Positions 2,880 to 23,923 of a DNA stretch of 64,000 nt are shown piece by piece. The stretch is taken from contig NZ_CP042430.1 in assembly GCF_007970665.1 (NCBI RefSeq), positions 4,402,001 to 4,466,000 on the forward strand. Direction: 5' to 3'. The notes below the pieces were generated by a model. The model saw nothing but the letters and a program-made list of their open reading frames with translations. It was not told the DNA's origin and did no database searches. Position numbers and translations under genes: made by a program. Numbering within the stretch: position 1 is the stretch's first letter; each line of letters starts with the position of its first letter. Source of the DNA: Baekduia soli (GTDB lineage Bacteria; Actinomycetota; Thermoleophilia; Solirubrobacterales; Solirubrobacteraceae).

Positions 2880-4125
2880 CGCGGTCGCCGCCGCCGCCCG
2901 GCCCGGGCTCGGCGGCCAGCAGGCGCGGGGCGGCGGCGACCATCGCGGCGCCGACGACCAGGGCGAAGCCCAGCAGGGTCGTGCGCACGCTGAGGTGCTG
3001 CAGCGCGATCCCCACGCCGACGACCGGCACCGACAGCCCGACGTAGCCCGCCAGGAACAGGCCGGCCAGCGCCTCGGCACGCGACTCGGGGGCCGAGATC
3101 GAGCCCACCGTGCCGATCGCGCCCTTGAACACCGCGCCGATGCCGCCGCCGGCCAGGGCGCCGCCCGCGAGGAACAGGGCCAGGCTCGGCGTCGACAGCC
3201 ACGCAGCGACGACCGTGAGCGCCAGCCCGGCGAGCATGAGCCCGATGCCGGTGGCCAACATCCGGCGCAGCCGCCAGGACTGCATCGCGGCCTGCGCGAC
3301 GACGCCGGCCCAGAACGTCACGAACACCGCGACGCCCGCCAGCGCGTGCGACGGGTGGTGCAGCGCACCGCCCAGGAACGTCGCGCTGAGGCCCGTGAAG
3401 AGGCCGAGCGCGCCGAAGGACACGAACGCGCCGGCGGCCGCGGCGGCGAACCGCCCGCGCGCGGCCTCGGGGACCGCGACGCGCTGGGGCCGGTAGGCGG
3501 GCATCGGGTCGGCGCGGCGCCGGGTCTCGGGCGCGACGGCCACGAGCACGACCGCCAGCAGCAGGAGCGCGACGAACACGACGTAGGGCACGGCGAGCGG
3601 CCGGGCGACCCACTGCGCCAGCGCCCCGGAGATCAGCGGCCCCAGGCCCAGCCCGCCGAGGTTGACCGTCGTGGCCACCAGTTGCGCGCGCCGCGGCCCG
3701 TCGCCGGGCCGCGCCTCGGCGTGCAGCTCGGCCAGCCACGCGGTCGCGGTCGCCGTGACGACCCCGACCGAGAGGCCGTTGACCACGCGCGCGATGAGCA
3801 GGCCGGGCACCTCGCGCCAGGCCAGGAAGACCAGGGCGCTGAGGACCGAGACCGCGACGGCCGGCACGAGCACGCGCCGCCGGCCGTGCCAGTCCGAGAC
3901 GTGGCCGGCGAACACGAGGCTGGCGATGACCCCGATCGCGTAGGCCCCGTAGATGACGGTGATCGTGAACGAGGAGAACCCGTCGCGCTGCTGGTAGAGG
4001 CCGTACAGCGGGCTCGGCACGGTCGAGAAGGCCATGACGACGGTGAACGCATAGGCCACCGACCAGAAGCCGGCGTCGAGGCGGCGCCGGCGGGCCTGGG
4101 CGGCGGGATCCTGGGCGACGGCCAT
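2869..4125 (-). CDS. MFS transporter, drug-efflux type
   Basis: 418 residues with about 12 predicted membrane helices, the standard major facilitator fold. A Motif-A-like loop (GHVSDWHGRRRVLVP) follows helix 2 and a second charged loop follows helix 6. The sequence FSTVPSPLYGLYQQRDGFSS at the start of helix 1 is common in actinobacterial multidrug/sugar-efflux-like MFS proteins. The substrate is unknown. The start MAVAQD at 4125 is preferred; MPGMAVAQ at 4137 is the alternative. Its 3' end overlaps the ligase stop by 11 bp in convergent orientation. Confidence 0.82.
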   Translation of the reverse strand: MAVAQDPAAQARRRRLDAGFWSVAYAFTVVMAFSTVPSPLYGLYQQRDGFSSFTITVIYGAYAIGVIASLVFAGHVSDWHGRRRVLVPAVAVSVLSALVFLAWREVPGLLIARVVNGLSVGVVTATATAWLAELHAEARPGDGPRRAQLVATTVNLGGLGLGPLISGALAQWVARPLAVPYVVFVALLLLAVVLVAVAPETRRRADPMPAYRPQRVAVPEAARGRFAAAAAGAFVSFGALGLFTGLSATFLGGALHHPSHALAGVAVFVTFWAGVVAQAAMQSWRLRRMLATGIGLMLAGLALTVVAAWLSTPSLALFLAGGALAGGGIGAVFKGAIGTVGSISAPESRAEALAGLFLAGYVGLSVPVVGVGIALQHLSVRTTLLGFALVVGAAMVAAAPRLLAAEPGPGGGGDRVNA

Positions 4126-4172
4126 CCCCGGGAGCATGCCCGGCGGGGCGCCGGCGTGCGCGCCGGCGCGGG

Positions 4173-4403
4173 TCAGATCGCGCGCATGCGGTTGCTGCGC
4201 GCCAGGTGCGCCAGCTCGGCGAGGTCGAGCGCCTCCAGCAGCGGCGGGCGGCGCCGCCGGCGGATGGCGTCGAGCAGCGTCCCGGGCCCCGCCTCGCCAC
4301 GGCGCCGGACGACGTGGGCCAGCTCGTCCAACGCCCCGAGCGCCGACCGCCGGCGGTGACGCGCGCCGCCGGACCGGCCGCCGCCGGAGCCCAGGCTCGT
4401 CAT
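4173..4403 (-). CDS. small basic hypothetical protein
   Basis: 76 residues, Arg-rich, with an amphipathic C-terminal helix (LLEALDLAELAHLARSNRMRAI). I do not recognise the family. Its ATG overlaps the TGA of the upstream SnoaL-like gene (ATGA), so the two are probably translationally coupled. No membrane segment or signal peptide is visible. Confidence 0.45.
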   Translation of the reverse strand: MTSLGSGGGRSGGARHRRRSALGALDELAHVVRRRGEAGPGTLLDAIRRRRRPPLLEALDLAELAHLARSNRMRAI

Positions 4404-4855
4404 CCCTCGGGCCCGGACCGGAGCTCGGCGCCGTCGATCTCGGAGGGCTGCACGACCCCCAGGCGGCCCAGCGCGCCGACGTCGGAGAAGTAGTGGCAGG
4501 CCGCGGTGATGCGCCCGCCGTCGACGGCGTAGAGGCCGATGACGTCGATCTCGGCGGCCAGCCGCATGGCGCAGACCACCCGCCGGTCGTCGAGGAGGTA
4601 CAGGTCGCGCACGACCAGCTCCGCGTCGCCGGCGACGGCGGGCAGCGGCCGGTGGATCGCACAGCGGCGGTCCACGGAGCATCCGAGGCGGTCCTGCGTC
4701 GTGCCCGGCGGCAGGCGGTCGCCGGGCGTCGTGGTCAGCGCCTGCCCGTCGCCGGCGTTGTGCGAGGCGATCGCGCGGCGCACGACGTCGCCGGGGTCCG
4801 GGGCGGACCCGAGGGCCGACGGTGCTGGGGGCAGGAGAAGGGAGGTCCTCACCAC
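4400..4855 (-). CDS. SnoaL/NTF2-like protein
   Basis: About 151 residues from the GTG at 4855. An ATG at 4984 is in frame, but the added N-terminus is low-complexity Gly/Arg and unlikely to be real. DVVRRAIASHNAGDG resembles the opening helix of SnoaL-like proteins, and the C-terminal IDVIGLYAVDGGRITAACHYFSDVGAL resembles the usual strand and 'DGRI' turn of the NTF2 fold. Members are small isomerases, hydrolases or ligand binders; no specific role can be assigned. It is the upstream gene of a two-gene coupled unit with the small protein at 4173-4403. Confidence 0.6.
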   Translation of the reverse strand: MVRTSLLLPPAPSALGSAPDPGDVVRRAIASHNAGDGQALTTTPGDRLPPGTTQDRLGCSVDRRCAIHRPLPAVAGDAELVVRDLYLLDDRRVVCAMRLAAEIDVIGLYAVDGGRITAACHYFSDVGALGRLGVVQPSEIDGAELRSGPEG

Positions 4856-5185
4856 GGCCACTCCGAACGAGGTTGGGGATGTGGGCGCGGGCGAGGCTCG
4901 GCGCCCGCGTGACGCGTCGTCCCGGCCTCGGGTCCTCCCGACCGCCGGCCCTCGGCGAGGCCGGCCACCGCGCCCCTCGACCATAGTCCTGCCTGGGCGT
5001 CACGGTTCCGTACCTTTCCGCAGCCCGGGCGAGGCGGACTACGGATGGCCGACCGGTACTCGCGCCATCGAGGACCTACGCGATCTGTGAGGACGAGTGT
5101 TCAGGCGAACGTCATGTGGATCGCGACAGGCTGGCACGACGCCGGCGCGAGTCCTCGCGACCACCCTCCGATCACGGCAGGCCCC
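4856..5185. other. intergenic region, no supported gene
   Basis: This divergent stretch upstream of the SnoaL-like gene has no ORF with coding character in its own right. It presumably holds promoters for that gene, but I see no convincing -10/-35 pair or operator. Confidence 0.4.
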
Positions 5186-5457
5186 ATGTCCGACCCGGCA
5201 CCACCGGCCCGCATCCTCGTCGCCACCGACCGCACCTCGGCCACCCCGGCGCTGCTGGACGCCATCCGCGACCGCGCGGTGCGTCCCGGTCGACGGCCAG
5301 GTCTCGACCCGGCGCGACCCCATGGACGCCGTGGAGGAGACCCCTCTCGGTCACCGGCCGCGACGTCATCGAGCAGGTGCGCGGGACCCACGAGGGCGGC
5401 AACCTGGGCGCGCACGTCGAACCGCTCCCCGACCGGGCGCGACCGGACCGACCTCTG
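5186..5457 (+). pseudogene. remnant of a nucleotide-binding/universal-stress-like protein
   Basis: From the ATG at 5186 one frame reads MSDPAPPARILVATDRTSATPALLDAIRDRA, which resembles the first strand and helix of a small actinobacterial universal-stress-like family. The frame then loses coding character. A second frame gives RRDPMDAVEET and a third gives VTGRDVIEQVRGTHEGGNL before the next gene starts at 5458. This looks like a gene with an internal deletion and frameshifts. The family assignment is tentative. Confidence 0.35.
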
Positions 5458-6741
5458 ATGCGCCGCCGCCTGCTCGCGCCCGCCGCCGCCGTCCTCGCCG
5501 CGGCGGCCGCGTGGCCCGGCACCGCCGCGGCCGCGCCGCGTCCGATGCGCGCCGGGGTCTGGACGACCCCGGCCGAGCTGCGCGCGCTGCCCGAGCGCGG
5601 TCCGGCCTGGACGGCGCTCAAGCGCGTGGCCGACGAGCCGATCGGCACTCCGCACCTCAACGGCAAGAACAGCAGCGCCGACACCCACACGCTGGCCGCA
5701 GCGCTCGTCTACGCACGCACCGCCGACCCCGGCTACGCCACCAAGGTCCGGACCGCGCTGATGGCCGTCATCGGCAGCGAGCGCGGGGGCCGGACGCTCG
5801 CGCTCGCACGCGGGCTGCAGGCCTACGTCATCGCCGCCGACCTCGTCGACCTGCACCGCCTCGATCCCGCCGCAGACCAGGCCTTCCGGACCTGGCTGGC
5901 CGCCGTGCGCACCGAGCGCCTGCGCCCCGCCGACACCCCGACGCTCATCGCCACCCACGAGATCCGCCCCAACAACTGGGGCACCCACGCCGGCGCCAGC
6001 CGCATGGCCGCCGACGTCTACCTCGGCGACACCACCGACCTGGCCCGCGCCGCGAAGGTCTTCAAGGGCTGGCTGGGCGACCGCGCCGCCTACCACGGCT
6101 TCAAGTACGGGCCACGCTCCTGGCAGGCGGACCCCACCAGGCCCGTCGCGATCAACCCACCCGGCGCCGTGCTGCACGGCCACCCCGTCGACGGCGCCCT
6201 GCCCGACGACCTGCGCCGCGGATGCGGCTTCCAGTTCCCCCCGTGCCCGACCGGCTACCCATGGGAGGCCATGCAGGGCGCCGTCGTCCAGGCCGAGATC
6301 CTGCACCGCCAGGGCTACGACGCCTACGACTGGGGCCACCAGGCGCTGCTGCGCGCCACCCGCTTCCTGCTGGCCCTCGACCGCCGCTACCCCACCGGCG
6401 GCTGGGGCATCAGCGGCGACGACACCTGGATCCCCTGGCTGCTCAACGCCCGCTACCACACCCACCTGCCCACGACCTCGCCCACCCAGCCCGGCAAGGG
6501 GATCGGCTTCACCGACTGGACCCTGGGCCCCACCGGCCGCCGCGTCACCGGATCCACCGCCGGCACGCCCACCCCGACCACGACACCGCCGCCCTCCGGG
6601 AGCCCGGCATCCGACCCGGGCCGGTCCTCATCGCCGTCGGCCACCCTCCCCGGCGAGTTGGGAATCGGTGCGCTGGTGCTCGCCGCCGCTCTGACCGCCG
6701 TGCTGGCCAGACGCCGCGGGCAGCGCCACGCCCGACCCTAG
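5458..6741 (+). CDS. secreted alginate-lyase-like protein with C-terminal anchor
   Basis: 427 residues. The N-terminus MRRRLLAPAAAVLAAAAAW is a signal peptide, probably cleaved after an Ala-rich AAAA site. The body is helical; RPNNWGTHAGASRMAADVYL resembles the catalytic Asn-rich helix of alginate-lyase-type (alpha/alpha) polysaccharide lyases. After about residue 365 comes a Thr/Pro/Ser-rich linker, then LPGEL, a hydrophobic helix and a basic tail (ARRRGQRHARP). This layout is like a sortase substrate or membrane-anchored surface protein, although LPGEL is not a standard LPXTG. The start is the ATG directly after the preceding stop. The polysaccharide substrate is unknown. Confidence 0.65.
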   Translation: MRRRLLAPAAAVLAAAAAWPGTAAAAPRPMRAGVWTTPAELRALPERGPAWTALKRVADEPIGTPHLNGKNSSADTHTLAAALVYARTADPGYATKVRTALMAVIGSERGGRTLALARGLQAYVIAADLVDLHRLDPAADQAFRTWLAAVRTERLRPADTPTLIATHEIRPNNWGTHAGASRMAADVYLGDTTDLARAAKVFKGWLGDRAAYHGFKYGPRSWQADPTRPVAINPPGAVLHGHPVDGALPDDLRRGCGFQFPPCPTGYPWEAMQGAVVQAEILHRQGYDAYDWGHQALLRATRFLLALDRRYPTGGWGISGDDTWIPWLLNARYHTHLPTTSPTQPGKGIGFTDWTLGPTGRRVTGSTAGTPTPTTTPPPSGSPASDPGRSSSPSATLPGELGIGALVLAAALTAVLARRRGQRHARP

Positions 6742-6781: not shown

Positions 6782-8374
6782 TCACGGCCCGGGGACGGCG
6801 CACCCCGGTCTGTCCTGGACCAACCGGGCCACCGAGAACCGGGCGGTCAGGGTGAAGGTCCCGGTCTCGGGCGTCTTCAGCAGCGTCCATCCGGCACGCG
6901 GCGAGACGCACGCGCGGCCACCCGTGACGTCCCAGTAGGGCGTCCAGTGCACGCGGAGCAGCACCGACCCCGGGCGTCGCACCTCCACTCGAACCCCCGA
7001 GCCGGTCAGCCGCACGGCACCGGCACGCCCGGAGCCCAACGCCAGCGGGTCGAGCACGCGGTACAGACGCCAGTGACGGCCCGCCCAGATCTGCTGCAGG
7101 AACGGAGCACCACGCCGGACCATGGCGGCCTCCGTCCGGCCCGAGGGATCCATGCGCGTGTCGGGCAGCGCGACGTAGTCCACGGCGTTGGCCCGCAGCC
7201 ACCGGTCATAGACGGCCGGCGTCAGCCGATGGTCGTAGAACAAGGGGTTGAGGCGACGATCCAGCTGGCGCTCCCACCCGCGCGCCAGGGCGAACCTGCG
7301 TGCCAGGTACACGGTCTCCCAATGCCCCTGGGTGAACGGCACCTCGACGCGACCGGCCGTGGCGCCCACGGCCCGCAGCTTGGCGACCAGCGGCTGGTAG
7401 TAGGCACTCGCGGCCGACGGGTCGTCCCATCCGCGCGCGGCCTGGGTGATCGGGTCGATCCACTGCCATGCGGCGGCGGCGCACAGGATGAGCAGGAGCA
7501 CCACCCGACGGACCGCGGGCGCGGTGGCCGCCGCAACGAGGAGCACGGGGGCCGCGAACGCGGTCCCCAGCCGCGTGATGTTGCCGCCCATCGGGCTGGC
7601 GATGACGAAGCACAGCACAGCGGCCGCGGCGTACAGCACCAGCGCGACGCGCAGGTGCCTCCGGCGTCCGACCGCGACCGCGGCCGCCAGCGAGATCGAG
7701 AGCGTCACCGCGAACGACGACCAGGAGAACGGCTGCGATCCGCCTTCGGGGAACGCGACGCTGAGCGCGACGACGCCCGCGAGCGCGGCGAGGCCGGTCA
7801 CGAGCGCGGCCCAGTGCCGATCGACGATCCACAGCGCCGCGCAGACGAGTGCGAGGAACAGACCCGCCACGGGGCTCGTGGCCGCGCAGCCCAGCGCGAG
7901 CACGGCCGCGCTGCGCGGCCGGTGGTGCACGAGCGCGAACACCGCGGCCAACCCGAACGACACTCCGAGCGCGTACGTCATCCGGCCGATCAGCAGGTCC
8001 GCCGAGCACCCCACCGCGAACCACCACCGTGCTGCCGTCGCCCCGCGACCTGCCACCAGGGCATCGAACAACGCCGCCGACGCCACCGCCGCCGACGCGC
8101 CCGCCAGGCGCACGCCGACCGCCGCGCCGACGGCGGGGAACACGAGCGAGTACCCGGGCAGGTGGTGCCCGCCGTACCAGCTGTTGTCCCAGACCGCGAA
8201 CCCGTTGGCCGCGAACAGGCCCACCCGGTGCAGTTGCGCCGCGAGGTCCGCGGTGGCCGGCCCGACGAGCAGCCATAGGCCGGCCAACAGGGCCGTGAGC
8301 ATCCAACTCGGCGGGGATCGTCGCCAGTCGACACGGCCGCGTGCGGGCACGATCACCCCTGCAGCATCGGCCAC
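6782..8374 (-). CDS. polytopic membrane protein, GT-C glycosyltransferase-like
   Basis: 530 residues, about 11-12 hydrophobic segments up to residue ~310, then a soluble C-terminal domain. The first extracytoplasmic loop contains VWDNSWYGGHHLPGYSLVF, similar in placement to the acidic loop of membrane glycosyltransferases. The C-terminal part (NPLFYDHRLTPAVYDRWL, VDYVALPDTRMDPSG) resembles the external domains of actinobacterial 'GT-C-like' proteins. No specific reaction is recognisable. It is the first gene of the divergent pair facing the small plus-strand genes at 8.4-9.5 kb and belongs to the surface-glycan block. Confidence 0.62.
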   Translation of the reverse strand: MADAAGVIVPARGRVDWRRSPPSWMLTALLAGLWLLVGPATADLAAQLHRVGLFAANGFAVWDNSWYGGHHLPGYSLVFPAVGAAVGVRLAGASAAVASAALFDALVAGRGATAARWWFAVGCSADLLIGRMTYALGVSFGLAAVFALVHHRPRSAAVLALGCAATSPVAGLFLALVCAALWIVDRHWAALVTGLAALAGVVALSVAFPEGGSQPFSWSSFAVTLSISLAAAVAVGRRRHLRVALVLYAAAAVLCFVIASPMGGNITRLGTAFAAPVLLVAAATAPAVRRVVLLLILCAAAAWQWIDPITQAARGWDDPSAASAYYQPLVAKLRAVGATAGRVEVPFTQGHWETVYLARRFALARGWERQLDRRLNPLFYDHRLTPAVYDRWLRANAVDYVALPDTRMDPSGRTEAAMVRRGAPFLQQIWAGRHWRLYRVLDPLALGSGRAGAVRLTGSGVRVEVRRPGSVLLRVHWTPYWDVTGGRACVSPRAGWTLLKTPETGTFTLTARFSVARLVQDRPGCAVPGP

Positions 8375-8582: not shown

Positions 8583-9506
8583 TTGGCCGCGCTCCTGGTG
8601 GCCGCCGCGTCGCTGCTCATCGGCCGGTCGCTGCGCTTCGACGCCTACGGCTGGCTTCGCTGGGGCCGGGAGATCGGGCTGGGCCAGGGACCGTTCGACA
8701 CGACGGGCTATCCGTCCTGGAAGCCCCTCCCGGTGCTCCTGACCGTGCCGCTGTCGATCACCGGCACGGCAGCGCCGATCCTGTGGCTCCTGGTGACTCG
8801 GACGATCGGCCTCGCCGGACTGGGCCTGGTGCTGCGCCTCGCGACCCGCCAGGGCGGAGCCATCGCCGGAGCCGCCGCCGTGGCCCTGCTCGCCGCGGCT
8901 CCGGGCTGGTGGCCGACCCTGCTGGGCGGCGGGATCGAGCCCGTCGTGGTGACCCTGGGGTGCTGCGCGCTCGCGGCCCATCGCGCCGGCCGCCCGCTGC
9001 TCGTCATCGCGCTGCTGTCAGCGATGGCTCTCGGCCGCGAGGAGGCGCTGCTCATGCTGGTGGCCTACGGAGTGATGCTGCGACGGCGCGGCCGGCGCTG
9101 GATCTTGGCCGTCGTGGGCGCCTCCAGCGGCGTCCTGGCAGCCTGGCTCGGTGGCGACTGGCTGGGCTCCGGCGACCCATGGCGTGGTGCCGAGCTCGCG
9201 CGCGCGGCGACCGCGTCGCCGACCTCATTGCACGGTCCGGCTCTTGGGATTGCTGTTGTGGCGACCGCAGTCGTCGTCGCCCTCGCGGTCGTCGGCGTCG
9301 CCGCGGCGTGGCGGGCACGCAACCGCGCGGTCACAGGCCTGGCCGCCAGCGCCATGGCCTGGGCGGCCGTCGACCTGGCGCTCTCCGGCATCGGCTACCC
9401 CCTCCCCGCACGCTTCCTGCTGCCGGCGGCGGCCGCCGCCGCCGTGACTGCCGGCACCGGCCTTGCCGTGCTGCTTCGCGGCCCAGGCGCTGTCCGTAGC
9501 TCCTGA
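8583..9506 (+). CDS. polytopic membrane protein of the surface-glycan block
   Basis: 307 residues with about 8 hydrophobic helices and a short periplasmic-type loop RFDAYGWLRWGREIG. The early acidic/aromatic loop and the overall pattern resemble truncated GT-C-like proteins, but I do not recognise the family. The start is uncertain: TTG at 8583 begins inside a helix, while the open frame reaches back to 8538 (a CTG giving GTHVASRRVGLTTLL, a natural cytoplasmic lead). It probably forms a unit with the small ORF just upstream. Confidence 0.55.
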   Translation: MAALLVAAASLLIGRSLRFDAYGWLRWGREIGLGQGPFDTTGYPSWKPLPVLLTVPLSITGTAAPILWLLVTRTIGLAGLGLVLRLATRQGGAIAGAAAVALLAAAPGWWPTLLGGGIEPVVVTLGCCALAAHRAGRPLLVIALLSAMALGREEALLMLVAYGVMLRRRGRRWILAVVGASSGVLAAWLGGDWLGSGDPWRGAELARAATASPTSLHGPALGIAVVATAVVVALAVVGVAAAWRARNRAVTGLAASAMAWAAVDLALSGIGYPLPARFLLPAAAAAAVTAGTGLAVLLRGPGAVRSS

Positions 9507-9552: not shown

Positions 9553-9933
9553 CTAGGACCCGGCCTGGTCGCGGCACGCCGGCTCGGCTCGTGCCTCCCC
9601 GAAGCACGCCGACCGATGACGGTCCCGGGCGCCGAAGTCCGGCGCCCGGTAGCCACCGATGACGCGGCCCGCGCGGTTGACCAACAGGCACTGGCGGTAG
9701 CCGGGGGCCGCGCCGCAGACGACGTCCTGCCGGGCGCCGGGCGCCGGGACCGGCTCGCCGAGGCGGACGTGCGCGGCGGCCGCCCAGGCGTGGAATGCGC
9801 TCTGGTCGCTCGGCACCCGCTGACGGAACCCTGTGCTGCGCACCACGCTCACGGCCGTGGCGACCAGGATCAGGGCGGCGAGGACAAGGAGCACGGCGTC
9901 GATCAGCCGCAGGCGCGGGAACCTACGCGACAA
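9553..9933 (-). CDS. single-pass membrane protein, unknown function
   Basis: 126 residues: basic N-terminus MSRRFPRLRLI, one membrane helix (AVLLVLAALILVATAVSVV), then an extracytoplasmic domain with four cysteines (VVCGAAPGYRQCLL, ACFGEARAEPACRDQ) that could form two disulfides. I do not recognise the family. Its start overlaps the 3' end of the mannosyltransferase-like gene by 11 bp, so it is the third gene of the 13914-9553 transcription unit. Confidence 0.6.
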   Translation of the reverse strand: MSRRFPRLRLIDAVLLVLAALILVATAVSVVRSTGFRQRVPSDQSAFHAWAAAAHVRLGEPVPAPGARQDVVCGAAPGYRQCLLVNRAGRVIGGYRAPDFGARDRHRSACFGEARAEPACRDQAGS

Positions 9934-11215
9934 CGTCAGGCACCAGGTGGGCGACGAACATGACCTGGATGAACAGCGTGGCCCACAACAGCCGCCGATC
10001 AGAGGTCAGGATGGCGAACGGCAGCGGCCAGATCGTGTACCACCCGAACATGGCGCTCCCCGCGCCCGCGGCGAGCAGCAGCGCCCAGCCGGCGCCGGCG
10101 ACCCAGTCGGCACCTCGCCAGACCGCCCACAGCAGTCCGGCGAGCACGAGCGCGGCCACCCCGGTCCCGAGCGGCCGGCGCCCGGGGAACCGGCCGATCA
10201 AGGCCATGATGTCACTGCCCGGACTGCTGCTGGTCACGAGGTGGGCGTGTGCCAGCACGGACGCGAACCCGAGCGCCGACCCTCGGAACACCGCGACGGC
10301 AAGCGCCGCGATGGCGGCGAACGCGGCGAGGCCGCCCAGGGCGGCGCGCCGGGGCTGCGGACCCCCCAGGAGCAGGAACGGCAGCACCACGGCGGCGCTG
10401 GCCTTGACGGCTGCTCCCGCCACGACCGCCGCCGCTCCCCCCGCCTCGCGCCGGGTGCACGCCAGGAGCACGCCGAGCATGGTGATGGCCAGCATCACCA
10501 AGTCGTTGTGGGCGCCCCCGATCGCGTAGATCAGAAAGATCGGGTTGAGCCCCACCGTCGCGGCCGCCACGACCGGGTCGCGTCCCCGGGCCTCGGCGAT
10601 CCGCCAGACGAACGCAACGACGGCCAGTCCGGCGGCGGCGGCGAGCAGCTTGAAGCCCCACAGGCCCGCGGCGATGCCCAGCGATCCCAGAGCGTAGGAG
10701 GGGATGGTGAACAAGGGCCCGTAGGCGCTCGGGGTGTGGGCCCAGAGCGCTGCGACGTAGCGCAGCACCGGGTCGTGCGGAGCCGCGTCCGGGCCGTACC
10801 GATACGGGCTGATGCCGTGCAGGGCGCCGAGCCGGCCGTAGGCGATGTAGCTGAAGACGTCACCGGAGAGCAGCGGAGGAGCCAGCAGGAAGATCACATG
10901 CAGCGCCACGATCCCGCCGATCACGACGGAGGCGGGCAGCGCAGGCCGGCAGGCCAGCACCACGGCGTAACCGGCGCCCAGGACCAGCACCGAGACCAAG
11001 AGCGCGCCGTGTCCGCGCGTCTGGCCGGCGCCCGCGAACGCCCCGGCCATCCAGCCGGGAAGCCGGTCTCCTGCCGCGGGCACCAGGAACGACGCGCCGG
11101 ACGCCGCGCCGCTCGCGAGCCACGTGCTCACCACCATCATCGACGACAGCGCGGCAGCGCCCGCGACCGCGGTGGCCCCGGGCCGGCGGGCGACGGCGGG
11201 CGACCGGCCTGTCAC
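9923..11215 (-). CDS. DUF2029-type polyprenyl-phosphate mannosyltransferase (GT87-like)
   Basis: 430 residues from a GTG at 11215 that overlaps the upstream TGA (GTGA). About 12 membrane helices. The first large external loop holds LSGDVFSYIAYGRLGALHG and NPYRYGP-like residues, the acidic loop signature of GT-C enzymes that use polyprenyl-phosphate sugars (mannosyltransferases of lipomannan or wall-polymer synthesis). It is translationally coupled to the 900-residue fusion that carries its own polyprenyl-phosphate mannose synthase-like domain, so donor synthesis and transfer are encoded side by side. The acceptor glycan is unknown. Confidence 0.75.
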   Translation of the reverse strand: MTGRSPAVARRPGATAVAGAAALSSMMVVSTWLASGAASGASFLVPAAGDRLPGWMAGAFAGAGQTRGHGALLVSVLVLGAGYAVVLACRPALPASVVIGGIVALHVIFLLAPPLLSGDVFSYIAYGRLGALHGISPYRYGPDAAPHDPVLRYVAALWAHTPSAYGPLFTIPSYALGSLGIAAGLWGFKLLAAAAGLAVVAFVWRIAEARGRDPVVAAATVGLNPIFLIYAIGGAHNDLVMLAITMLGVLLACTRREAGGAAAVVAGAAVKASAAVVLPFLLLGGPQPRRAALGGLAAFAAIAALAVAVFRGSALGFASVLAHAHLVTSSSPGSDIMALIGRFPGRRPLGTGVAALVLAGLLWAVWRGADWVAGAGWALLLAAGAGSAMFGWYTIWPLPFAILTSDRRLLWATLFIQVMFVAHLVPDVVA

Positions 11216-13914
11216 GGCGGCGGCACCGACGGGCTGCCCAACGGGATCAGCCCCGGCTCGGCACCGGGACGGTCCTCGAAGGCCGTGTGCGCCGTCGCCG
11301 CGTCGTCGGTCGACGACATGCGGATGGCCGGGATCAGCCAGAGCGCCTCGAGCGCGATCGTCACCGACATCTTCGACCGGCCCAGGCGCCGGTCGCGGAA
11401 GACGATCGGCACCTCGGCGACCGCGAACCCCTCGCGCACCGCCCGATAGGTCAGCTCGACCTGGAAGGCGTAACCGCGGGCCCGCACGCTCGGCAGGTCG
11501 ATCCTCTCGAGGACCTCGCGGCGCAGGCACTTGAACCCGCCCGTCAGATCGCGTACGGGCAGGCCGAGGACCTGCCGCGCATACCAGGAGCCTCCACGGC
11601 TGATCCCCCGCCGGATCCGGCCCCAGTCGCTCACCCCTCCCCCGGCGACGTAACGGGAGCCCAACGCCACGTCGGCACCCTCGTCACGAACGGCGCTGAG
11701 CAGCCGCACCAGATCGGCGGGATCGTGCGACCCGTCGGCATCCATCTCGAACACGAACCCGGCCCCCTCGTCGAGGGCCTGCGCGAAGCCCGCGAGGTAG
11801 GCCGGTCCCAGCCCCTCGCGAACCGTGCGGTGCAGCACACGGACCTCGGCGTGTTCCGCTGCGAGCCGATCGGCGATCCACCCGGTCCCGTCGGGCGAGT
11901 CGTCGTCCACGACGAGGATCACGAAGCCCTCGGGCGCCGCGCACGACAGGGCGGCCCGGGCACCCTCGATCACGGTCTCCAGGTTGTCGGCCTCGTCGTA
12001 GGTGGGCAGCACGAGCCAGGGCACGCCCCAGGCCTGCGATGGGCGCGCGCGGGCCACGGGCGCGGGGGCACGCCGGCGGTGCAGCGCGCGGCCCGCGAGC
12101 ACCGCCGCGAGCGTGATCGCCACCCCCGCCGCTGCGATGGTCAGCACGTCGCGCGGGAACGGGCCATGGCCCACCGTGCTCCAGAGGTCGCTGCTGAACG
12201 ACAGGACCCCGATCGCCGTCATCGCGGCGACCAGCGGCGCGCTGGCCGCCAGCGCGGTCATCGCGATCGGGACGAGCAGGTACCACGAGAACCCGAGGTC
12301 CGGGAGCAGTGCCGCGAAGGCGACCGACACGACGGCCCACCCGCGCACCATGCGCCGGGGCGTCCCGTCCTGACGCAGGCCCACCGCGAGCATCACGAGG
12401 GCGAAGATCAGCGCCACCACGGCGCGCGGAGGCGACGAGCCACCGGTCTGTAGGAGGCGCAGCTCGCGTCCCATCAGTCCGGGCGCACCCGCGAAGGGGG
12501 CGTATACGACCGCGACCGTCACGGCGACGAGCGCCGCCTCGAGCGCGAGCTCGGCCCAGCGGTGGCGGCGCAACAGCCCCACCCAACGTACGGCCACCAG
12601 CGGGAGCGTGACCAGCTTGACCAGCGCCGACAGCACCATGCCGACCGCACCGACGCGCCGGTGGCCGGCCACCAGCGCCAGCGCCCCGGCGAGCACGAGC
12701 GCGACCATCACCGAGTCGACCTTGGTCGGCGCCCCCATGATCACGATCGGGTTCCAGCCGTAGGCGACGACCCCGGCCAGCTGTGCGCGCGGATAGAGCC
12801 TTCGCAAGAGCAGGACGATCAACAGCAGGCTCAGCGCCCCGCAGAGCGCGAGGGCGACCCGATAGGCGACGAGGCCGTCGACGACCTGGCGTCCAGTGAC
12901 CTTCGCCAGCCCCACGTCGAGCAGCGTCCAGACGCCGAGCTTGTTGTCCCCGGGGATCGACGTGTACCGGCGGTCGGTATAGGCGTAGGCGGGGTCCCCG
13001 GGAAACGCGTCGGCGGCGACGGCGTACGGGTCGGCGCCGTGGACCGCGGCCACGCGACCGGTGGCCATGTACTCGTAGATGTCGGTATTGAGCGTGGGCA
13101 GCGCCACCACGGTCAGCGCGAAGAACACCAGCGCCCCCCCGGCGACCAGCGCCAGCCGGCGCGGCGTCGCCTCGCGCCGCCAGCACGCTCTCAGCGCGGC
13201 CGCGTAGACCGCGAATGCGAGCGCCGTGGTCAGCAGCACGGCCGCCGCGATGCCGGGCCGGGTCGTCGGCACCGGCAGGTCGGCGTTGGTGACGGCCGAC
13301 CAGAGATCGAGCCGGTGGATCAGCGCGGCGCTCGGCTTGGCCAGCCGCGCCGGCGTCTGGGACAGCACGAAGCACCAGACGGCGACCATGGCCCCGAGCG
13401 TCGTGGCGCAGCCGCTCAGCACCCAGGCCAGACGCCGGCTCACGGCGTCCGGCGGCTTCTCGGCCGCGAACGACCACACGCGGTTGCCGACGAAGCTCAC
13501 GGGCGTCACCAGCGCGATCGCGACGGCCTGGGCGACGACCTTGGGCAAGCCGGAGGCGACGGCTGTGCGCAAGAGGATCAGGTTGGCGCCGAGAGCCACG
13601 ACCGAGACGAGCAGGAAGCGGGTGCCCTGGCGCACGAGGCGCGCACGGCGACGACCGAACGTCCACCGGCGGTTCCACACGTAGTTGTTGACCACCGCCA
13701 CCGAGAACGAGCCGGCCGCGGCCAGGACGTAGTAGACACCCAGGCCGTGGACAAGGGCCACGTAGACGGCGAGGTTGACGACGTAGCCCAGCGCCCCCAC
13801 CACGCAGTATCGGCCGAGATCCATCCAGTTGCGCCGGCGGCGAAGGGCGCGGCCCCAGCGAGCACCGATGCCCAGGTGCATCTTCCGCTGCCCGGATCCG
13901 TCCGCGCTGGCCAT
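11212..13914 (-). CDS. three-domain fusion: GtrA-like + GT-C mannosyltransferase + DPM1-like GT2
   Basis: 900 residues in one uninterrupted frame. Residues ~28-152 are a four-helix GtrA domain (YCVVGALGYVVNLAVYVAL, VVNNYVWNRRWTF). Residues ~160-615 are a DUF2029/GT-C-type polytopic region with the acidic loop TLNTDIYEYMATGRVAAVHG. Residues ~640-870 are a GT-A glycosyltransferase of the dolichyl-phosphate mannose synthase class (VLPTYDEADNLE, VVDDDSPDGTG, FEMDADGSHDP, DLTGGFKCLRR). Known family roles are sugar-lipid flipping/positioning (GtrA), synthesis of polyprenyl-phosphate-mannose (GT2) and transfer from it outside the membrane (GT-C). The fusion could therefore make, flip and use its donor; that is inference. 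Confidence 0.85.
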   Translation of the reverse strand: MASADGSGQRKMHLGIGARWGRALRRRRNWMDLGRYCVVGALGYVVNLAVYVALVHGLGVYYVLAAAGSFSVAVVNNYVWNRRWTFGRRRARLVRQGTRFLLVSVVALGANLILLRTAVASGLPKVVAQAVAIALVTPVSFVGNRVWSFAAEKPPDAVSRRLAWVLSGCATTLGAMVAVWCFVLSQTPARLAKPSAALIHRLDLWSAVTNADLPVPTTRPGIAAAVLLTTALAFAVYAAALRACWRREATPRRLALVAGGALVFFALTVVALPTLNTDIYEYMATGRVAAVHGADPYAVAADAFPGDPAYAYTDRRYTSIPGDNKLGVWTLLDVGLAKVTGRQVVDGLVAYRVALALCGALSLLLIVLLLRRLYPRAQLAGVVAYGWNPIVIMGAPTKVDSVMVALVLAGALALVAGHRRVGAVGMVLSALVKLVTLPLVAVRWVGLLRRHRWAELALEAALVAVTVAVVYAPFAGAPGLMGRELRLLQTGGSSPPRAVVALIFALVMLAVGLRQDGTPRRMVRGWAVVSVAFAALLPDLGFSWYLLVPIAMTALAASAPLVAAMTAIGVLSFSSDLWSTVGHGPFPRDVLTIAAAGVAITLAAVLAGRALHRRRAPAPVARARPSQAWGVPWLVLPTYDEADNLETVIEGARAALSCAAPEGFVILVVDDDSPDGTGWIADRLAAEHAEVRVLHRTVREGLGPAYLAGFAQALDEGAGFVFEMDADGSHDPADLVRLLSAVRDEGADVALGSRYVAGGGVSDWGRIRRGISRGGSWYARQVLGLPVRDLTGGFKCLRREVLERIDLPSVRARGYAFQVELTYRAVREGFAVAEVPIVFRDRRLGRSKMSVTIALEALWLIPAIRMSSTDDAATAHTAFEDRPGAEPGLIPLGSPSVPPP

Positions 13915-14150
13915 CCACGACGAGCGTCCCAGTCACGAACTGACGCGCGCCTGAACACCGCACCGCCCGGCAGCCCGCTCCTGGCCTTCGCCGCTTCGGT
14001 CGCCGACGGCTGGTCCCCGCTGTCGTCATGGAGCATGGCTCGACCCCATGGAGAGTCCGTCGGTTCGTGTGGCGACGTCGTGGTCCTCGGCCAACCTGAC
14101 GACGCTGGTCATCGTCACGACCGCACGTCCCGCAGGCCGATCGAGGCACG
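13915..14150. other. intergenic region upstream of the GtrA fusion gene
   Basis: No gene is supported here. It should contain the promoter of the minus-strand glycosyltransferase unit. I see no clear consensus promoter or operator. Confidence 0.35.
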
Positions 14151-14452: not shown

Positions 14453-17239
14453 TCAGGTCGGGAGCACGAGCTCGGGCTGGTTGGTGCCTTCGCGGCTGGA
14501 GTAGATGGCGCTGTTGGTGCTCGAGCTGGTGATCTCGAAGCTGTAGATGCCGTTGCCCGTGATGGCGGAGCCGAGGGGGATCTCGATCCACTGGCCGGCG
14601 GTCGTGCCGCCGATGGTGGCGATGCTCGAGCCTGTCGGGACCGGCGCGGTGTTCCAGTTCACCGCGCCCTCGGTCCACGCGTCTCCGACCTTGTAGATCG
14701 CGCCGCCGTCGGGGCTGGCGTCGGTGACGAAGAGCCGGAGCTTGGCGCCGACGATGGGGCCAGAGGCTCCCGTGACGTCGAACTTCAGCAAGGTGTGGTA
14801 CGTGACGTTGTTGCTGGCGTCGCCTTGGCGGATCTGCAGGGTCGTCGCGGTGCCGTAGTTTCTGGTTGGGCTGGTGTTCTTGACGTGGGCGTCGGCGACC
14901 GGGGTGATCGTGCGTGTGGTCCCAGGCGGCGGCTGGTCGGCGACCACGATGTACCCGGCTTTGGTCTCGACGTCCGAGACGCCGTCGGAGGTGCGCGTGG
15001 CGGTCAGCGTGACGGTGTAGGTCCCGGGCGCGGTATAGGTGTGGCTCGGGCTCTGCTGGTTCGAGGTGCCGCCGTCGCCGAAGTCCCAGCTCCAGCTGTC
15101 GGCGCCGCCGGTGGACTGGTCGGTGAAGTCCACCGCCAGCGTGCCCTGCCCGCTGGTCGCCGAGGCCGCAAACTGCGCGACGACCGCCCCGGGGCCGGGG
15201 GTTCCACCGCCGCTGGTGGTCAGGATGAGTTGCGGCTGGTTGGCCGCGGCCTCTCGGCTGGCGTAGTACTGGCTGTTGGAGCTCGTGGTCGTCAGCGCGA
15301 AGCTGTAGATGCCGTCGGCGGCGATCGGGTTGCCCAGCGGGATATCGACGAACGCGGCGCTGGCGGTCTTGCCGGCGGTTCCGATGGTCGACCCCAGCGC
15401 CGGGGCGGTGTTCCAGGTGATGCCCGACTCGGTCCACGAGGATGAGGTCGCACTGACCGCTCCGCCGTCCGGGCTGCCGTCGGTGGAGTACAGCCGCAGC
15501 TTGGCGGAGGTCGGCGTGCCCGTCAGCCCGGTGACGTCGAACTTGAGATAGGAGTTGTAGTTGGTACCGGTCGCGCTTGAGTCCTTGCGCAGGCGCAGCG
15601 ATGTCGCCGTGCCGTAGTTCTTGGTCGGGCTGTTGGACTTGACCGGTGCGTCGGCCACCGCCGGGAAGCTCTGCTCGCCGCTGGCCGGCACGTCGGCCAC
15701 GCTGATCAGCCCGGTCTGGGTCTTGGTGTCCGGGCCGACCGCGTTGGTCGCCGTCAGCGTGACCGAGTACGTGCCGTTGGCGGTGTAGGTGTGCGCCGGG
15801 TTGACCTCGGTGGAGGTCTGGCCGTCACCGAAGTCCCACAGATATGAGGACGGGGCCGGCGTGCCGGTCGTGGTGTTGGTGAACTGCACGTTCAGGGGCG
15901 CGGTGCCGGACGTCGGCGTCGCCGAGAAGTTCGCCGTCGGGGCACTCTCGACCGGCGGGTTGCCGCCCAGCGCACGGTCGCTGTGCCAGTAGAGGTTCAG
16001 CGTGTCCTCACCGGCCAGGGCGACGATGCCGCTCTGGCTGGTCAGGTTCTGCTTGGTGGAGGTGACGTCGTTGAGATCGGGCGTGCCGCTGCCCTCGTGC
16101 ATGATCGTCGTGCCCGGCCCGTTGGTGAACTGCGGGCTGGCCATCGAGGTGACCTTCTCGCAGATGTCGCCGCCGTTCTGCCCGCTGGTCGCGCCGGCCT
16201 CCGGGCAGGTGGCCAGGACATGGATCTCTCCCGCGGCCTCGTTGAGCAGGATGAGCGGGCGCGTGTGCTGCGGGGCCAGGCCGAAGACATAGTGCGACCA
16301 GACGCCGGCCGGCGAGCGCCGGGACAGCAGGATCAACGGATTGCCGGTGGTCTCGCTGGTCTTGGTCGCGGCCCAGACGTTGCCCGCCGTGTCGGCGCGC
16401 AGGCTGATGTGGTCATCGGGGCTGTAGCCCGTGTTGAGGTTGGCCACCGACCACGCCGAGTCCGCCGCGCCGTCGGTATGGACGGCGAAGCGCATCTGCC
16501 CGGCGGCCTGGTCGCTCCACAGGATGCCGATCTTGCTGTCGAAGGCGATGATCGAGGAGATGTCGTCCTTGGACGTCGTCCCCGCGCCCGGCACCTCGAC
16601 CGGCGCGGTCCACGACGCCTCGTCGCCCGCGTTGCTGTGCGCGAACCAGATCTTCTGCCCAGCCTGCCAGGTCGCCCACAGCCGCCCGGTCGAGTCCTTG
16701 TCGATCGTCATCGTCTCGGCGTCGTGCGGCGCGAACGTGACCGGGAACCCGCTGTCCAGCGAGTAGCTGTCTGACAGCGTGTTGTAGCTGTAGCGATAGA
16801 GACGGTTGCCGTTCGCCGTCCCGGCGCTCGTGCTCGGCGCGCTGCCGCTCAGCGTGCCGTCGTGGTAGACGTGGCTGGCGACGTAGAGCTTGTTGATCGA
16901 ACCGTCCCACAGGATGTCCGAGCGCGTGCTCTTGCGAGGATCAAGCTGGGTGCCCGTGTCCTGCCAGGTGTTCGAGGTCCGGTCCAGCCTGTGGATCGAG
17001 TGCTTGTCGGTCGAGCCGTTGTACAGGTCGCCCCACCACGAGCCATCGGCATACCACAGCTTGCTCTCCTTGTTGCCCGTCGCAGAACCACCCAGGCTGC
17101 CCCACGACGCATCCTGATAGCCCACATCGCCGGTCGCCGCCCGCGCCGCAAGAGGCAGCAGCAAGGTCGCCGCCAACAACAAGAACATCGCCAGCATCGC
17201 GCCCCGCCCAGCACGACGACCGACCGATCGACAAGGCAT
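14453..17239 (-). CDS. large secreted protein: beta-propeller-like region, 2 PKD and 2 DNRLRE domains
   Basis: 928 residues. A signal peptide (MLAMFLLLAATLLLPLAARAA, second Met possibly the true start) is followed by ~400 residues of BNR/sialidase-like strand-rich sequence with HDAETMTIDKDSTGRLWATW-type repeats. Next come a PKD domain (NVQFTNTTTGTPAPSSYLWD, then FGDGQTS), a DNRLRE/CBM96-type domain (VKSNSPTKNYGTATSLRLRK), a second PKD (SWDFGDGGTSNQQSPSHTY) and a second DNRLRE domain at the C-terminus. No active site is obvious. Surface or exported adhesion/carbohydrate-binding roles fit the domains. A smaller protein at 24702-26306 has the same PKD + DNRLRE ending. Confidence 0.75.
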   Translation of the reverse strand: MPCRSVGRRAGRGAMLAMFLLLAATLLLPLAARAATGDVGYQDASWGSLGGSATGNKESKLWYADGSWWGDLYNGSTDKHSIHRLDRTSNTWQDTGTQLDPRKSTRSDILWDGSINKLYVASHVYHDGTLSGSAPSTSAGTANGNRLYRYSYNTLSDSYSLDSGFPVTFAPHDAETMTIDKDSTGRLWATWQAGQKIWFAHSNAGDEASWTAPVEVPGAGTTSKDDISSIIAFDSKIGILWSDQAAGQMRFAVHTDGAADSAWSVANLNTGYSPDDHISLRADTAGNVWAATKTSETTGNPLILLSRRSPAGVWSHYVFGLAPQHTRPLILLNEAAGEIHVLATCPEAGATSGQNGGDICEKVTSMASPQFTNGPGTTIMHEGSGTPDLNDVTSTKQNLTSQSGIVALAGEDTLNLYWHSDRALGGNPPVESAPTANFSATPTSGTAPLNVQFTNTTTGTPAPSSYLWDFGDGQTSTEVNPAHTYTANGTYSVTLTATNAVGPDTKTQTGLISVADVPASGEQSFPAVADAPVKSNSPTKNYGTATSLRLRKDSSATGTNYNSYLKFDVTGLTGTPTSAKLRLYSTDGSPDGGAVSATSSSWTESGITWNTAPALGSTIGTAGKTASAAFVDIPLGNPIAADGIYSFALTTTSSNSQYYASREAAANQPQLILTTSGGGTPGPGAVVAQFAASATSGQGTLAVDFTDQSTGGADSWSWDFGDGGTSNQQSPSHTYTAPGTYTVTLTATRTSDGVSDVETKAGYIVVADQPPPGTTRTITPVADAHVKNTSPTRNYGTATTLQIRQGDASNNVTYHTLLKFDVTGASGPIVGAKLRLFVTDASPDGGAIYKVGDAWTEGAVNWNTAPVPTGSSIATIGGTTAGQWIEIPLGSAITGNGIYSFEITSSSTNSAIYSSREGTNQPELVLPT

Positions 17240-19493: not shown

Positions 19494-20153
19494 GTGGACG
19501 ACCCCTATCGCCTCTATCTCGTGGTGCGCCGCGGCGCCTTCGAGGACCTCGAGACCGGCGGCGTGCTGGCCGGCGCGGCCGCGGTGGCCTGCCTGGAGCG
19601 CTTCGGCGCCGATCCGGCGCACGCCGAGGCGGTCGCCGCCTGGCGCGCCCGGCCCGGCAAGGTGACGCTGCGGGCCCGCGGCGGCCAGTGGCCGCAGGTG
19701 CTCGACCTCCCCCACGCCCTGGCCGGCGACCCCGACGGCGCGGCGGTCGCGGCGCTGCCGCCGCGGCGGCGCTCCGAGCGCGGCGAGCTGCTCGAGCGCC
19801 TGCAGGCGATGTCCTCCGAGCTGGAGCCCGCCCCGGTGCTGGGCGACGGCGAGCCGCCGGCCGCCGCCGACGGCCGGCTGACCTACCTGGTCAACCCGGC
19901 GCTGGAGATGAGCTCGGGCAAGACGCTGGCCCAGATCGCCCACGCCGCGACGATGGCCGCCGCCCGCCCGGACCTGGCGGGCTGGGTCGCGGCGGGCTGC
20001 CCGGCGCGCGTCCGCGTCCCGGCGCCCGTGGTCTTCGCCGCGCTGTGCGGGGCCGGCGGCCTGGCCGCCGAGGTCCAGGACGCCGGGCTGACCGAGGTCG
20101 CGCCCGGAACGGTCACCGTGCTGGCCGTGGCGCCGGCGCTCAGGCCTTGCTGA
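19494..20153 (+). CDS. PTH2-family peptidyl-tRNA hydrolase-like protein
   Basis: 219 residues from a GTG. The C-terminal half carries LTYLVNPALEMSSGKTLAQI followed by AHAATMAA, matching the PTH2 motif around the conserved Lys (small-residue-GK-x-AAQ-x-xHA). The N-terminal half (YRLYLVVRRGAFEDLETGG) aligns by eye with the same fold but lacks the Lys/Gln motif, suggesting a degenerate duplicate domain. PTH2 enzymes release peptides from stalled peptidyl-tRNA. The gene starts just beyond the poly-C inverted repeat and ends 14 bp inside the convergent GtrA gene. Confidence 0.65.
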   Translation: MDDPYRLYLVVRRGAFEDLETGGVLAGAAAVACLERFGADPAHAEAVAAWRARPGKVTLRARGGQWPQVLDLPHALAGDPDGAAVAALPPRRRSERGELLERLQAMSSELEPAPVLGDGEPPAAADGRLTYLVNPALEMSSGKTLAQIAHAATMAAARPDLAGWVAAGCPARVRVPAPVVFAALCGAGGLAAEVQDAGLTEVAPGTVTVLAVAPALRPC

Positions 20154-20517
20154 AGACCCAGCGGCGCCCGACGAGGTAGGTCGCGGCGGGCGTGACCGGC
20201 AGCAGCACGAGCTGGGCGAGGATCTTGTCGGCGCCCAGGCCGTCGACGGCGATCGCGAGCAACAGCAGGTTCAGCCCCGTGGCCAGCGCCTGGGCGGCCA
20301 GCCAGCCCAGCCAGCCGCGGACCGACGGCGCGCCGCCCTTGAAGGTCCAGTGCTCGTGCAGCCAGTAGCCCAGCGACGCCGAGAGCACGAAGGCGAGGAA
20401 GGACGAGAGCAGGTAGGGGACGCCGATGAGCACCCCGCCCGCGTACAGCCCGAAGTAGGTGGCGGCGTTGAAGCCGCCCACCAGGCCGAAGCGCAGGAGC
20501 TCGTGGTAGCGCGCCAC
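20140..20517 (-). CDS. GtrA-family four-helix membrane protein
   Basis: 125 residues with four membrane helices, the standard GtrA size. LLRFGLVGGFNAATYFGLYA opens helix 1 and LGYWLHEHWTFKG matches the conserved W-x-F/Y segment after helix 2; the C-terminus YLVGRRWVFSKA repeats the pattern. GtrA proteins move or position polyprenyl-linked sugars or act with nearby glycosyltransferases. No glycosyltransferase adjoins it. It is a stand-alone relative of the GtrA domain fused at 11212-13914. Confidence 0.85.
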   Translation of the reverse strand: MARYHELLRFGLVGGFNAATYFGLYAGGVLIGVPYLLSSFLAFVLSASLGYWLHEHWTFKGGAPSVRGWLGWLAAQALATGLNLLLLAIAVDGLGADKILAQLVLLPVTPAATYLVGRRWVFSKA

Positions 20518-23919: not shown

Positions 23920-23923
23920 CGGG

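What the first reader, a model, noticed from the sequence alone, without database searches (positions are those of the whole stretch)
11212..13914. One polypeptide joins GtrA flippase-like, GT-C and dolichyl-phosphate-mannose-synthase-like domains
Separate GtrA, GT-C and DPM1-like genes are common; DPM1-like enzymes are sometimes fused to a GtrA-type domain or to Lnt. Here all three are in a single 900-residue frame with key motifs of each, and a second DUF2029-type transferase is coupled directly downstream. This could be a self-contained machine that makes polyprenyl-phosphate-sugar, moves it across the membrane and transfers the sugar.
Basis: partly seen in the sequence, partly recalled or inferred. 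Interest (0 to 1): 0.72.

Follow-up and report, generated by a model that had tools for sequence, protein, structure and literature searches.

The report
Three-in-one sugar-lipid glycosyltransferase fusion protein
A probable soil actinobacterium carries one 900-residue membrane protein that joins the three parts that other bacteria make as separate proteins to load a sugar on a lipid, move it across the membrane and attach it to the cell surface; the parts are ordinary, the complete fusion looks rare.

Summary
Window 11212-13914 (minus strand) is one continuous 900-codon frame: a GtrA domain (Pfam PF04138, 9e-26), a GT-C domain, and a DPM1-type GT2 domain (PF00535, 5e-27). The GT-C part has no Pfam hit but matches a GT87/MptB-like profile (hhalign E 9e-22). 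A GT87 gene that passes NCBIfam's MptB cut-off starts inside its stop codon (GTGA overlap). These are the three components of known "three-component" glycosylation systems, on one chain. Best reading: polyprenyl-phosphate-sugar (probably mannose) synthase, putative flippase and transferase, also feeding the GT87 enzyme. Activity, flipping and sugar are inferred.

The full fusion was found only in this genome. Two clear relatives of the GT-C domain turned up: one (74% identical) lacks GtrA and its contig ends before the GT2 position; the other (about 40%) is free-standing at both ends. The fused GT2 falls among the family's usual DPM1-type copies. So GtrA was probably inserted near the start and a duplicated GT2 appended. 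Coding signal is unbroken across both joins. New variant of a known kind; moderate interest, mainly as a one-protein test of GtrA's flippase role.

The parts
11212..13914 (-). Fused ORF, 900 aa: GtrA - GT-C - GT2 (P0001)
   Evidence: unbroken coding signal
13468..13812 (-). GtrA/DPMS transmembrane domain (residues 35-149), putative polyprenyl-phosphate-sugar flippase
   Evidence: Pfam PF04138 9.3e-26; four helices in the model, low confidence
12082..13434 (-). GT-C domain (residues 161-611), divergent MptA/MptB/GT87-like subfamily
   Evidence: hhalign E 8.8e-22 to GT87/MptB-like profile; 74% to L007, about 40% to G685
13081..13083 (-). Asp278, invariant in the 20-row GT-C alignment, at the end of the third GT-C hydrophobic segment; candidate catalytic residue
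   Evidence: catalytic role and outer side inferred
11311..12024 (-). DPM1-type GT2 domain (residues 631-868), predicted cytoplasmic
   Evidence: Pfam PF00535 4.9e-27 at 634-805; best PDB sequence match 5mlz, P. furiosus DPMS, 5.7e-35; pLDDT mostly above 90
11734..11742 (-). Asp-Ala-Asp (725-727), DxD motif of the GT2 domain
   Evidence: nearly invariant in alignment A3
9923..11215 (-). GT87 / MptB-like gene (430 aa), GTGA overlap with the fused ORF
   Evidence: Pfam GT87 3.8e-8; NCBIfam MptB NF038066 52.3 bits, cut-off 40; overlap
9553..9933 (-). Small predicted protein (126 aa) with one hydrophobic stretch by eye, overlapping the end of the GT87 gene; possible third gene of the operon, no Pfam family
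   Evidence: gene, translation, Pfam
13881..13974 (-). Start region whose DNA still matches the start of the GtrA-less relative L007
   Evidence: local alignment score 58.5, reached by 0 of 2000 dinucleotide shuffles, highest 51.5 (region chosen); BLASTN 66 columns at 13892-13956, 73%, E 2e-5

Best explanation
The ORF encodes a single-chain version of a three-component transmembrane glycosylation system. The C-terminal GT2 domain, on the cytoplasmic side, loads a sugar (most likely mannose from GDP-mannose) onto polyprenyl phosphate. The N-terminal GtrA domain helps the lipid-linked sugar reach the outer leaflet. The GT-C domain, with its active-site loop outside, transfers the sugar to a surface glycan or lipid acceptor. 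The translationally coupled GT87/MptB-like enzyme uses the same donor for a second linkage. It arose in Solirubrobacteraceae when a GtrA unit was inserted near the start of a free-standing GT-C gene and a copy of the housekeeping DPM1-type GT2 gene was joined to its end. Shown: the frame, the three domains, motif retention in GT2, an invariant Asp in GT-C, the overlap with the GT87 gene, and GtrA-less (2 of 2) and GT2-less (1 of 1 that could be tested) relatives of the GT-C part. Inferred: every catalytic and transport step, the sugar, the acceptor, the topology and the order of events.
For: Domains. PfDPMS (5mlz) matches the GT2 part and, weakly (19.6 bits, 0.0019), the GtrA part of this protein, and is the best structural match of the model (E 4e-15). 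The downstream gene passes the MptB cut-off. In 16 of 28 family loci fetched as best GT-C matches, a DPM1-type GT2 (57-63% identical) lies in the 1.5-kb flanks of the GT87-like gene; 12 of 28 show none there. In L070 (Patescibacteria) the GT2 and GT-C genes are adjacent too. In relative G028 the GT87-like gene is followed by a GT2-GH76 fusion; GH76 is recalled as an alpha-1,6-mannanase family. A GtrA gene overlaps a GT87 gene in L224. Hydropathy: with the N terminus inside, Asp278 falls outside and the GT2 inside (read by eye). Three-component systems use these three families (PMC8035078; PMC11127046 passages).
Against: No biochemical evidence. The model is poor over GtrA and GT-C (mean pLDDT 61.4, pTM 0.44). 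The GT-C part and L007 lack the YG(P/S) and HND motifs that the other 18 of 20 rows have, and carry a 5-residue insertion before the conserved WY. No GH76 match in the own genome. The GT2 reaches no NCBIfam cut-off; its best named match is a GalNAc synthase model, 57.7 against a cut-off of 370. The MptB match of the downstream gene covers only about 167 of its 430 residues, and it is far below the MptA cut-off. The fusion is a single case, so it is not conserved as a fusion.
Confidence: 0.6

Rival explanations
1. The protein is a membrane-anchored polyprenyl-phosphate-sugar synthase whose GtrA and GT-C parts serve as anchor, oligomeriser or substrate-presenting scaffold; the coupled GT87 enzyme does the transfer. 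This resembles how the membrane half of M. tuberculosis Ppm1 relates to its synthase half.
For: The GT-C subfamily lacks YG(P/S) and HND. Ppm1's membrane partner in M. smegmatis stabilises the synthase (PMC3485146 passages). Relative G023 has a GT2 fused to an LPG_synthase_TM domain.
Against: The GT-C part keeps Asp278 and seven other invariant residues, is 74% identical to a GtrA-less relative with dN/dS about 0.28, and occurs free-standing in G685, so it seems to have a function of its own.
Confidence: 0.25
2. The single frame is an assembly or sequencing artefact that joins separate, overlapping genes.
For: Relatives of each part, where read gene by gene, are mostly separate genes; the fusion is seen in one genome only. 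The genome is estimated 95.55% complete with 3.13% contamination, and how it was sequenced is unknown.
Against: Coding signal stays in one frame across both joins; the genome is one 5.2-Mb contig. A small indel error could not create the GtrA unit that lies between a start region and a GT-C part which both match L007.
Confidence: 0.07
3. The chain works as a three-component module but with a sugar other than mannose (for example glucose, galactose or GalNAc), decorating a surface polymer rather than building mannan.
For: Three-component systems use several sugars (PMC8035078 Table 1). GtrB and ArnC enzymes are also structural matches of the GT2. Divergent GT-C motifs. No GH76 in the own genome.
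Against: Best sequence and structure match is a dolichol-phosphate mannose synthase; MptB-like downstream gene; GT2-GH76 fusion beside a GT87-like gene in a relative; 7 of the 25 listed plasmid matches are annotated polyprenol monophosphomannose synthase.
Confidence: 0.25

Closest known systems
Three-component (multi-component) transmembrane glycosylation systems: GtrA/GtrB/Gtr(type), CsbB/GtcA/YfhO, GtsABC
   Same: Same three families: GT-A fold (GT2) polyprenyl-phosphate-sugar synthase, GtrA-type putative flippase, GT-C transferase
   Different: In the review's Table 1 the named parts are separate genes; here all three are one chain, with a second GT-C (GT87) gene coupled downstream
Pyrococcus furiosus dolichol-phosphate mannose synthase (5mlz and relatives)
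   Same: GT2 and GtrA-type membrane domain in one protein; best sequence and structure match
   Different: Opposite domain order (GT2 first) and no GT-C part in the 374-residue chain
Mycobacterium tuberculosis Ppm1 (membrane domain fused to the synthase domain)
   Same: DPM1-type synthase at the C-terminal end of a multi-span membrane domain; fused in some species, separate genes in others (PMC3485146 passages)
   Different: Ppm1's membrane half is a six-span domain (Lnt-like, as recalled), not GtrA plus GT-C
MptA/MptB polyprenol-phosphomannose-dependent alpha-1,6-mannosyltransferases
   Same: Middle domain and downstream gene belong to the same GT-C/GT87 superfamily; the downstream gene passes the MptB cut-off
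   Different: As recalled they are not fused to a synthase or GtrA; the middle domain matches no NCBIfam MptA/MptB model at E up to 1 and lacks YG(P/S) and HND

Membership tests
Three-component transmembrane glycosylation system | GT-A fold (GT2) polyprenyl-phosphate-sugar synthase | tested here: met
   Family membership only: PF00535 4.9e-27; DxD kept; best match PfDPMS. Activity not tested
Three-component transmembrane glycosylation system | GtrA-type (or Wzx-type) flippase | tested here: met
   Family membership only: PF04138 full length, 9.3e-26. Flipping not tested
Three-component transmembrane glycosylation system | GT-C type transferase | tested here: met
   hhalign E 8.8e-22 to GT87/MptB-like proteins; no confident fold prediction
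Three-component transmembrane glycosylation system | DxD or modified DxD motif in an outer loop of the GT-C | tested here: inconclusive
   Asp278 invariant, four residues before an invariant Tyr282, but no DxD; outer side only by hydropathy read by eye
Three-component transmembrane glycosylation system | The three parts act together on an acceptor outside the cell | not testable with these tools
   needs biochemistry or genetics
DPM1 / polyprenol-monophosphomannose synthase (GT2) | Sequence motifs of the family | tested here: met
   falls in a clade with 25 GT2s of the same family, support 97/90
DPM1 / polyprenol-monophosphomannose synthase (GT2) | Uses GDP-mannose | not testable with these tools
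   inferred only
Pfam GT87 (PF09594) for the middle domain | Score over Pfam's cut-off | tested here: not met
   no GT87 hit for residues 161-611 at 1e-3, for L007 at E up to 1, or for L218 at E up to 0.01, where only a sub-cut-off PIG-U match shows; related by profile only
MptB (NF038066) for the downstream gene | NCBIfam score over the cut-off | tested here: met
   52.3 bits against 40, best stretch about 167 of 430 residues
MptA (TIGR03459) for the downstream gene | NCBIfam score over the cut-off | tested here: not met
   93.6 bits against 439.4

The most novel reading that the evidence does not exclude
A complete three-component glycosylation system on one polypeptide, in which the lipid-linked sugar is handed from synthase to flippase to transferase within the same molecule (or dimer), so that donor made by this protein is reserved for its own GT-C and the coupled GT87 enzyme and kept apart from the general polyprenyl-phosphate-sugar pool made by the genome's free-standing DPM1-type copy.
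Probability: 0.3. Interest if true: 0.65.

Novelty: new variant of a known kind. Interest (0 to 1): 0.42.

Why it matters
How polyprenyl-phosphate-linked single sugars cross the membrane is unsettled, and the GtrA family is only a putative flippase in the papers seen. A natural protein with synthase, GtrA and transferase in a fixed 1:1:1 ratio would let the whole path be put into liposomes with one purified protein, with GtrA deleted or mutated inside it. It also ties these three families together functionally, and it marks a small GT-C subfamily that Pfam does not name.

Tried and rejected
Chance or spurious frame: rejected. In this high-GC genome long empty frames are common, so frame length alone was not used.

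Other fusions hinted at by long open frames were looked at with my own simple gene caller. In one search it called five GT2 genes, all free-standing (L183, L184, L185, L188, L191). It missed the GT2 that tblastn placed in L182, L187, L190, L192 and L193; L182 (the own copy) was then read by hand and is intact, the other four were not judged. In one search four of five loci held free-standing GT2 relatives (L247, L248, L249, L251) and one a fusion (L250). In one search, ten of the twelve loci fetched for GtrA had it as a free-standing gene; the other two were L223 (phosphodiesterase-GtrA frame) and L234, where the own genome has a GT2-GtrA protein of the usual order (382 aa; GtrA match). The two loci fetched for GT2 gave a free-standing gene (L236) and a GT2-GH76 fusion (L235). 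No fusion of all three domains was seen. The long class-level GT-C frames (L170-L178, L180) show no GT2 or GtrA match by tblastn at 1e-2.

Structure prediction: confident only for GT2, because few GT-C sequences were allowed in the alignment; no fold claim for the middle domain rests on it. Profile searches of solved structures with GT-C alignments found nothing credible. Alignment A2 placed other GT-C proteins on the GT2 region, so it was dropped and A3 used.

GH76 as proof of mannan in this organism: rejected, no match in the own genome; 7 of 61 genomes have one.

Literature: the listings of searches showed no paper on a GtrA-GT-C-GT2 fusion (two returned nothing at all); the library lacks most subscription journals, so this is weak evidence of novelty.

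Full report
What is there. The frame at 11212-13914 lies on the minus strand, 900 codons from ATG. Pfam finds GtrA at 35-149 (9.3e-26) and Glycos_transf_2 at 634-805 (4.9e-27), nothing in between at 1e-3. The middle, compared as a three-member profile with 12 GT87/MptB-like proteins of the family, aligns over 374 columns at E 8.8e-22. In a 20-row alignment Asp278, Tyr282, Asp400, Lys433, Trp544 and Tyr545 are among eight invariant columns (numbers converted to the full protein). The other 18 rows carry YG(P/S) and HND motifs; the middle domain and L007 do not, having instead a PGDNK stretch and PTK(V/A)D, with five extra residues before the conserved WY. G685 shows similar departures. So it is a small, divergent GT-C subfamily.

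Reading frame and joins. A codon model trained on 21 long window frames (this gene may be among them) gives frame 0 the best score of the three same-strand frames in 58 of 58 windows of 30 codons. The lowest scores are at the start (1-45), 466-495, 601-630 (the linker to GT2), 676-705 and 736-795. The GT-C part against L007 shows codon-position identity 0.82, 0.83 and 0.58 and dN/dS about 0.28 over 452 codons. Because residues 1-30 score low, a start at Met31 cannot be excluded.

Surroundings. The next gene, 9923-11215, starts in the GTGA overlap, hits GT87 and passes the NCBIfam MptB cut-off over part of its length. A predicted 126-aa protein follows, overlapping by 11 bases. Upstream, 14453-17197 has two CBM96 and two PKD stretches. 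So the organism is probably a member of Solirubrobacteraceae.

How rare is the fusion. With the whole protein as query, a full-length match was listed only for the own genome among 61 genomes, own included (its list of weaker matches is cut). With the GT-C part: 146 family genomes, strong matches only in the own genome (937.7 bits) and G149 (642), next 53.2; 399 class genomes, next best after the own 71.9 bits; 396 phylum genomes, one further clear relative, G685, 282.5 bits, next 95.8. With the three-row profile: 232 order genomes, only the own and G149 strong, next 78.7 bits; 66 genomes of G685's class, only G685, next 80.4 bits. These sets overlap, and class and phylum are samples. None of 72,556 plasmid or 50,697 phage records covers 80% of the query in one place. 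In the genome-contig scan 310 stretches encoded a relative and the best 80 were kept; none was reported as matching the whole length, and the one with a long range (L070, 256-850) is two adjacent genes. Fusions elsewhere with unrelated GT-C parts would have been missed.

How it arose. L007 has the GT-C part at 74% over 422 aa without GtrA; its contig ends near the residue matching 611, so whether a GT2 follows is unknown. Its start region still matches the window's: a 66-column BLASTN match runs from 42 bases upstream to about 23 downstream of the ATG (E 2e-5), and the longer local alignment scores 58.5 against a highest value of 51.5 in 2000 dinucleotide shuffles (the region was chosen after seeing the match). 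G685's copy is free-standing and the genome's GT2 relative lies elsewhere, with no GtrA match of this kind. Two of two relatives without GtrA point to an insertion after about codon 11. Close GT2 relatives were called as free-standing genes in five of five loci in which the gene caller found them, four of these next to a gene that looks like DNA polymerase X (a recalled label). The own genome keeps an intact free-standing copy, 70% identical over 233 aa to the fused one, and also has a GT2-GtrA protein of the usual order (L234). In a 56-row tree, from 67 loci offered of which 55 gave a usable GT2, the fused GT2 falls in a clade with 25 other GT2s of the family (support 97/90; its inner branching is unresolved), apart from all 17 GT2s that lie next to GT87-like genes. 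I labelled these 25 rows by where they came from, not by checking each neighbourhood. So the fused GT2 is most likely a duplicate or transferred copy of the housekeeping gene.

Function. PfDPMS is the best match of GT2 in sequence (5.7e-35) and structure (4e-15), and shares a GtrA-type membrane domain. In 16 of 28 family loci a DPM1-type GT2 lies in the 1.5-kb flanks of the GT87-like gene (the loci were picked as best GT-C matches, and some flanks are cut by contig ends). In G028 the GT87-like gene is followed after two bases by a GT2-GH76 protein. In L224 a GtrA gene overlaps a GT87 gene by four bases. These neighbours repeatedly pair the three families. Mannose is favoured by the MptB-like gene, PfDPMS and GH76, but GH76 is absent from the own genome and the GT2 passes no named cut-off.

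Topology. Hydropathy gives overlapping segments between 36 and 144 in GtrA, then 162-185, 220-244 and 252-277 before Asp278, and a last one at 588-611 followed by an Arg-rich tail. Read by eye with the positive-inside rule, the N terminus and GT2 are inside and Asp278 outside, as the mechanism needs. The predicted structure cannot confirm this: pLDDT is mostly above 90 only in GT2, and mean pLDDT is 61.4.

Literature. The review PMC8035078 (section 8 read; passages) describes the three-part systems, lists the named parts as separate genes in its Table 1, and calls the GtrA-type proteins putative flippases. Passages only were seen of PMC11127046, PMC7389260, PMC2440535 and PMC3485146; other papers were seen in listings only. 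No listing showed the triple fusion.

Verdict. A real, coherent and apparently rare complete fusion of a known kind of system; the mechanism is likely but untested.

Noticed in passing
L235 (G028:C455) 84-2111 minus: DPM1-type GT2 fused to a GH76 glycosidase domain, two bases after a GT87-like gene: synthase and (as recalled) mannanase-family enzyme on one chain.
   Followed up: partly
L250 (G023:C89) 1817-3550 plus: LPG_synthase_TM domain fused in front of a DPM1-type GT2: another membrane partner for the same GT2 kind.
   Followed up: partly
L234 (G000:C1:1497500-1503500) 2686-3834 minus: The own genome has a GT2-GtrA protein of the usual domain order (382 aa), separate from the fusion (GT2 by BLAST; GtrA by Pfam profile).
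   Followed up: partly
L223 (G035:C1:776500-783000) 3029-4960 minus: One frame joins a type I phosphodiesterase and GtrA; in L224 the two are neighbouring genes, and L225-L231 look alike by eye. Could be a frame artefact.
   Followed up: partly
window 23443-24340 minus: Two adjacent half-size EamA proteins, 52% identical over 119 aa: a tandem pair that may form a heterodimeric transporter.
   Followed up: partly
window 14453-17197 minus and 24702-26306 plus: Two proteins of the window carry CBM96 and PKD domains; one lies upstream of the fusion.
   Followed up: partly
window 6782-8302 minus and 8583-9506 plus: Two hydrophobic proteins near the operon with no Pfam family over its cut-off; they look GT-C-like by eye.
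   Followed up: no
window 5377-6741 plus: Alginate_lyase-domain protein (Pfam 5.7e-9) near the operon.
   Followed up: no
window 20140-20517 minus: A second, free-standing GtrA gene in the same window; the genome has six GtrA matches in all, the fusion included.
   Followed up: partly
L218 (G685:C439) 1752-3293 plus and L007 3617-5041 plus: With the fused GT-C domain these are the only clear members found of a GT-C subfamily without a Pfam model.
   Followed up: yes
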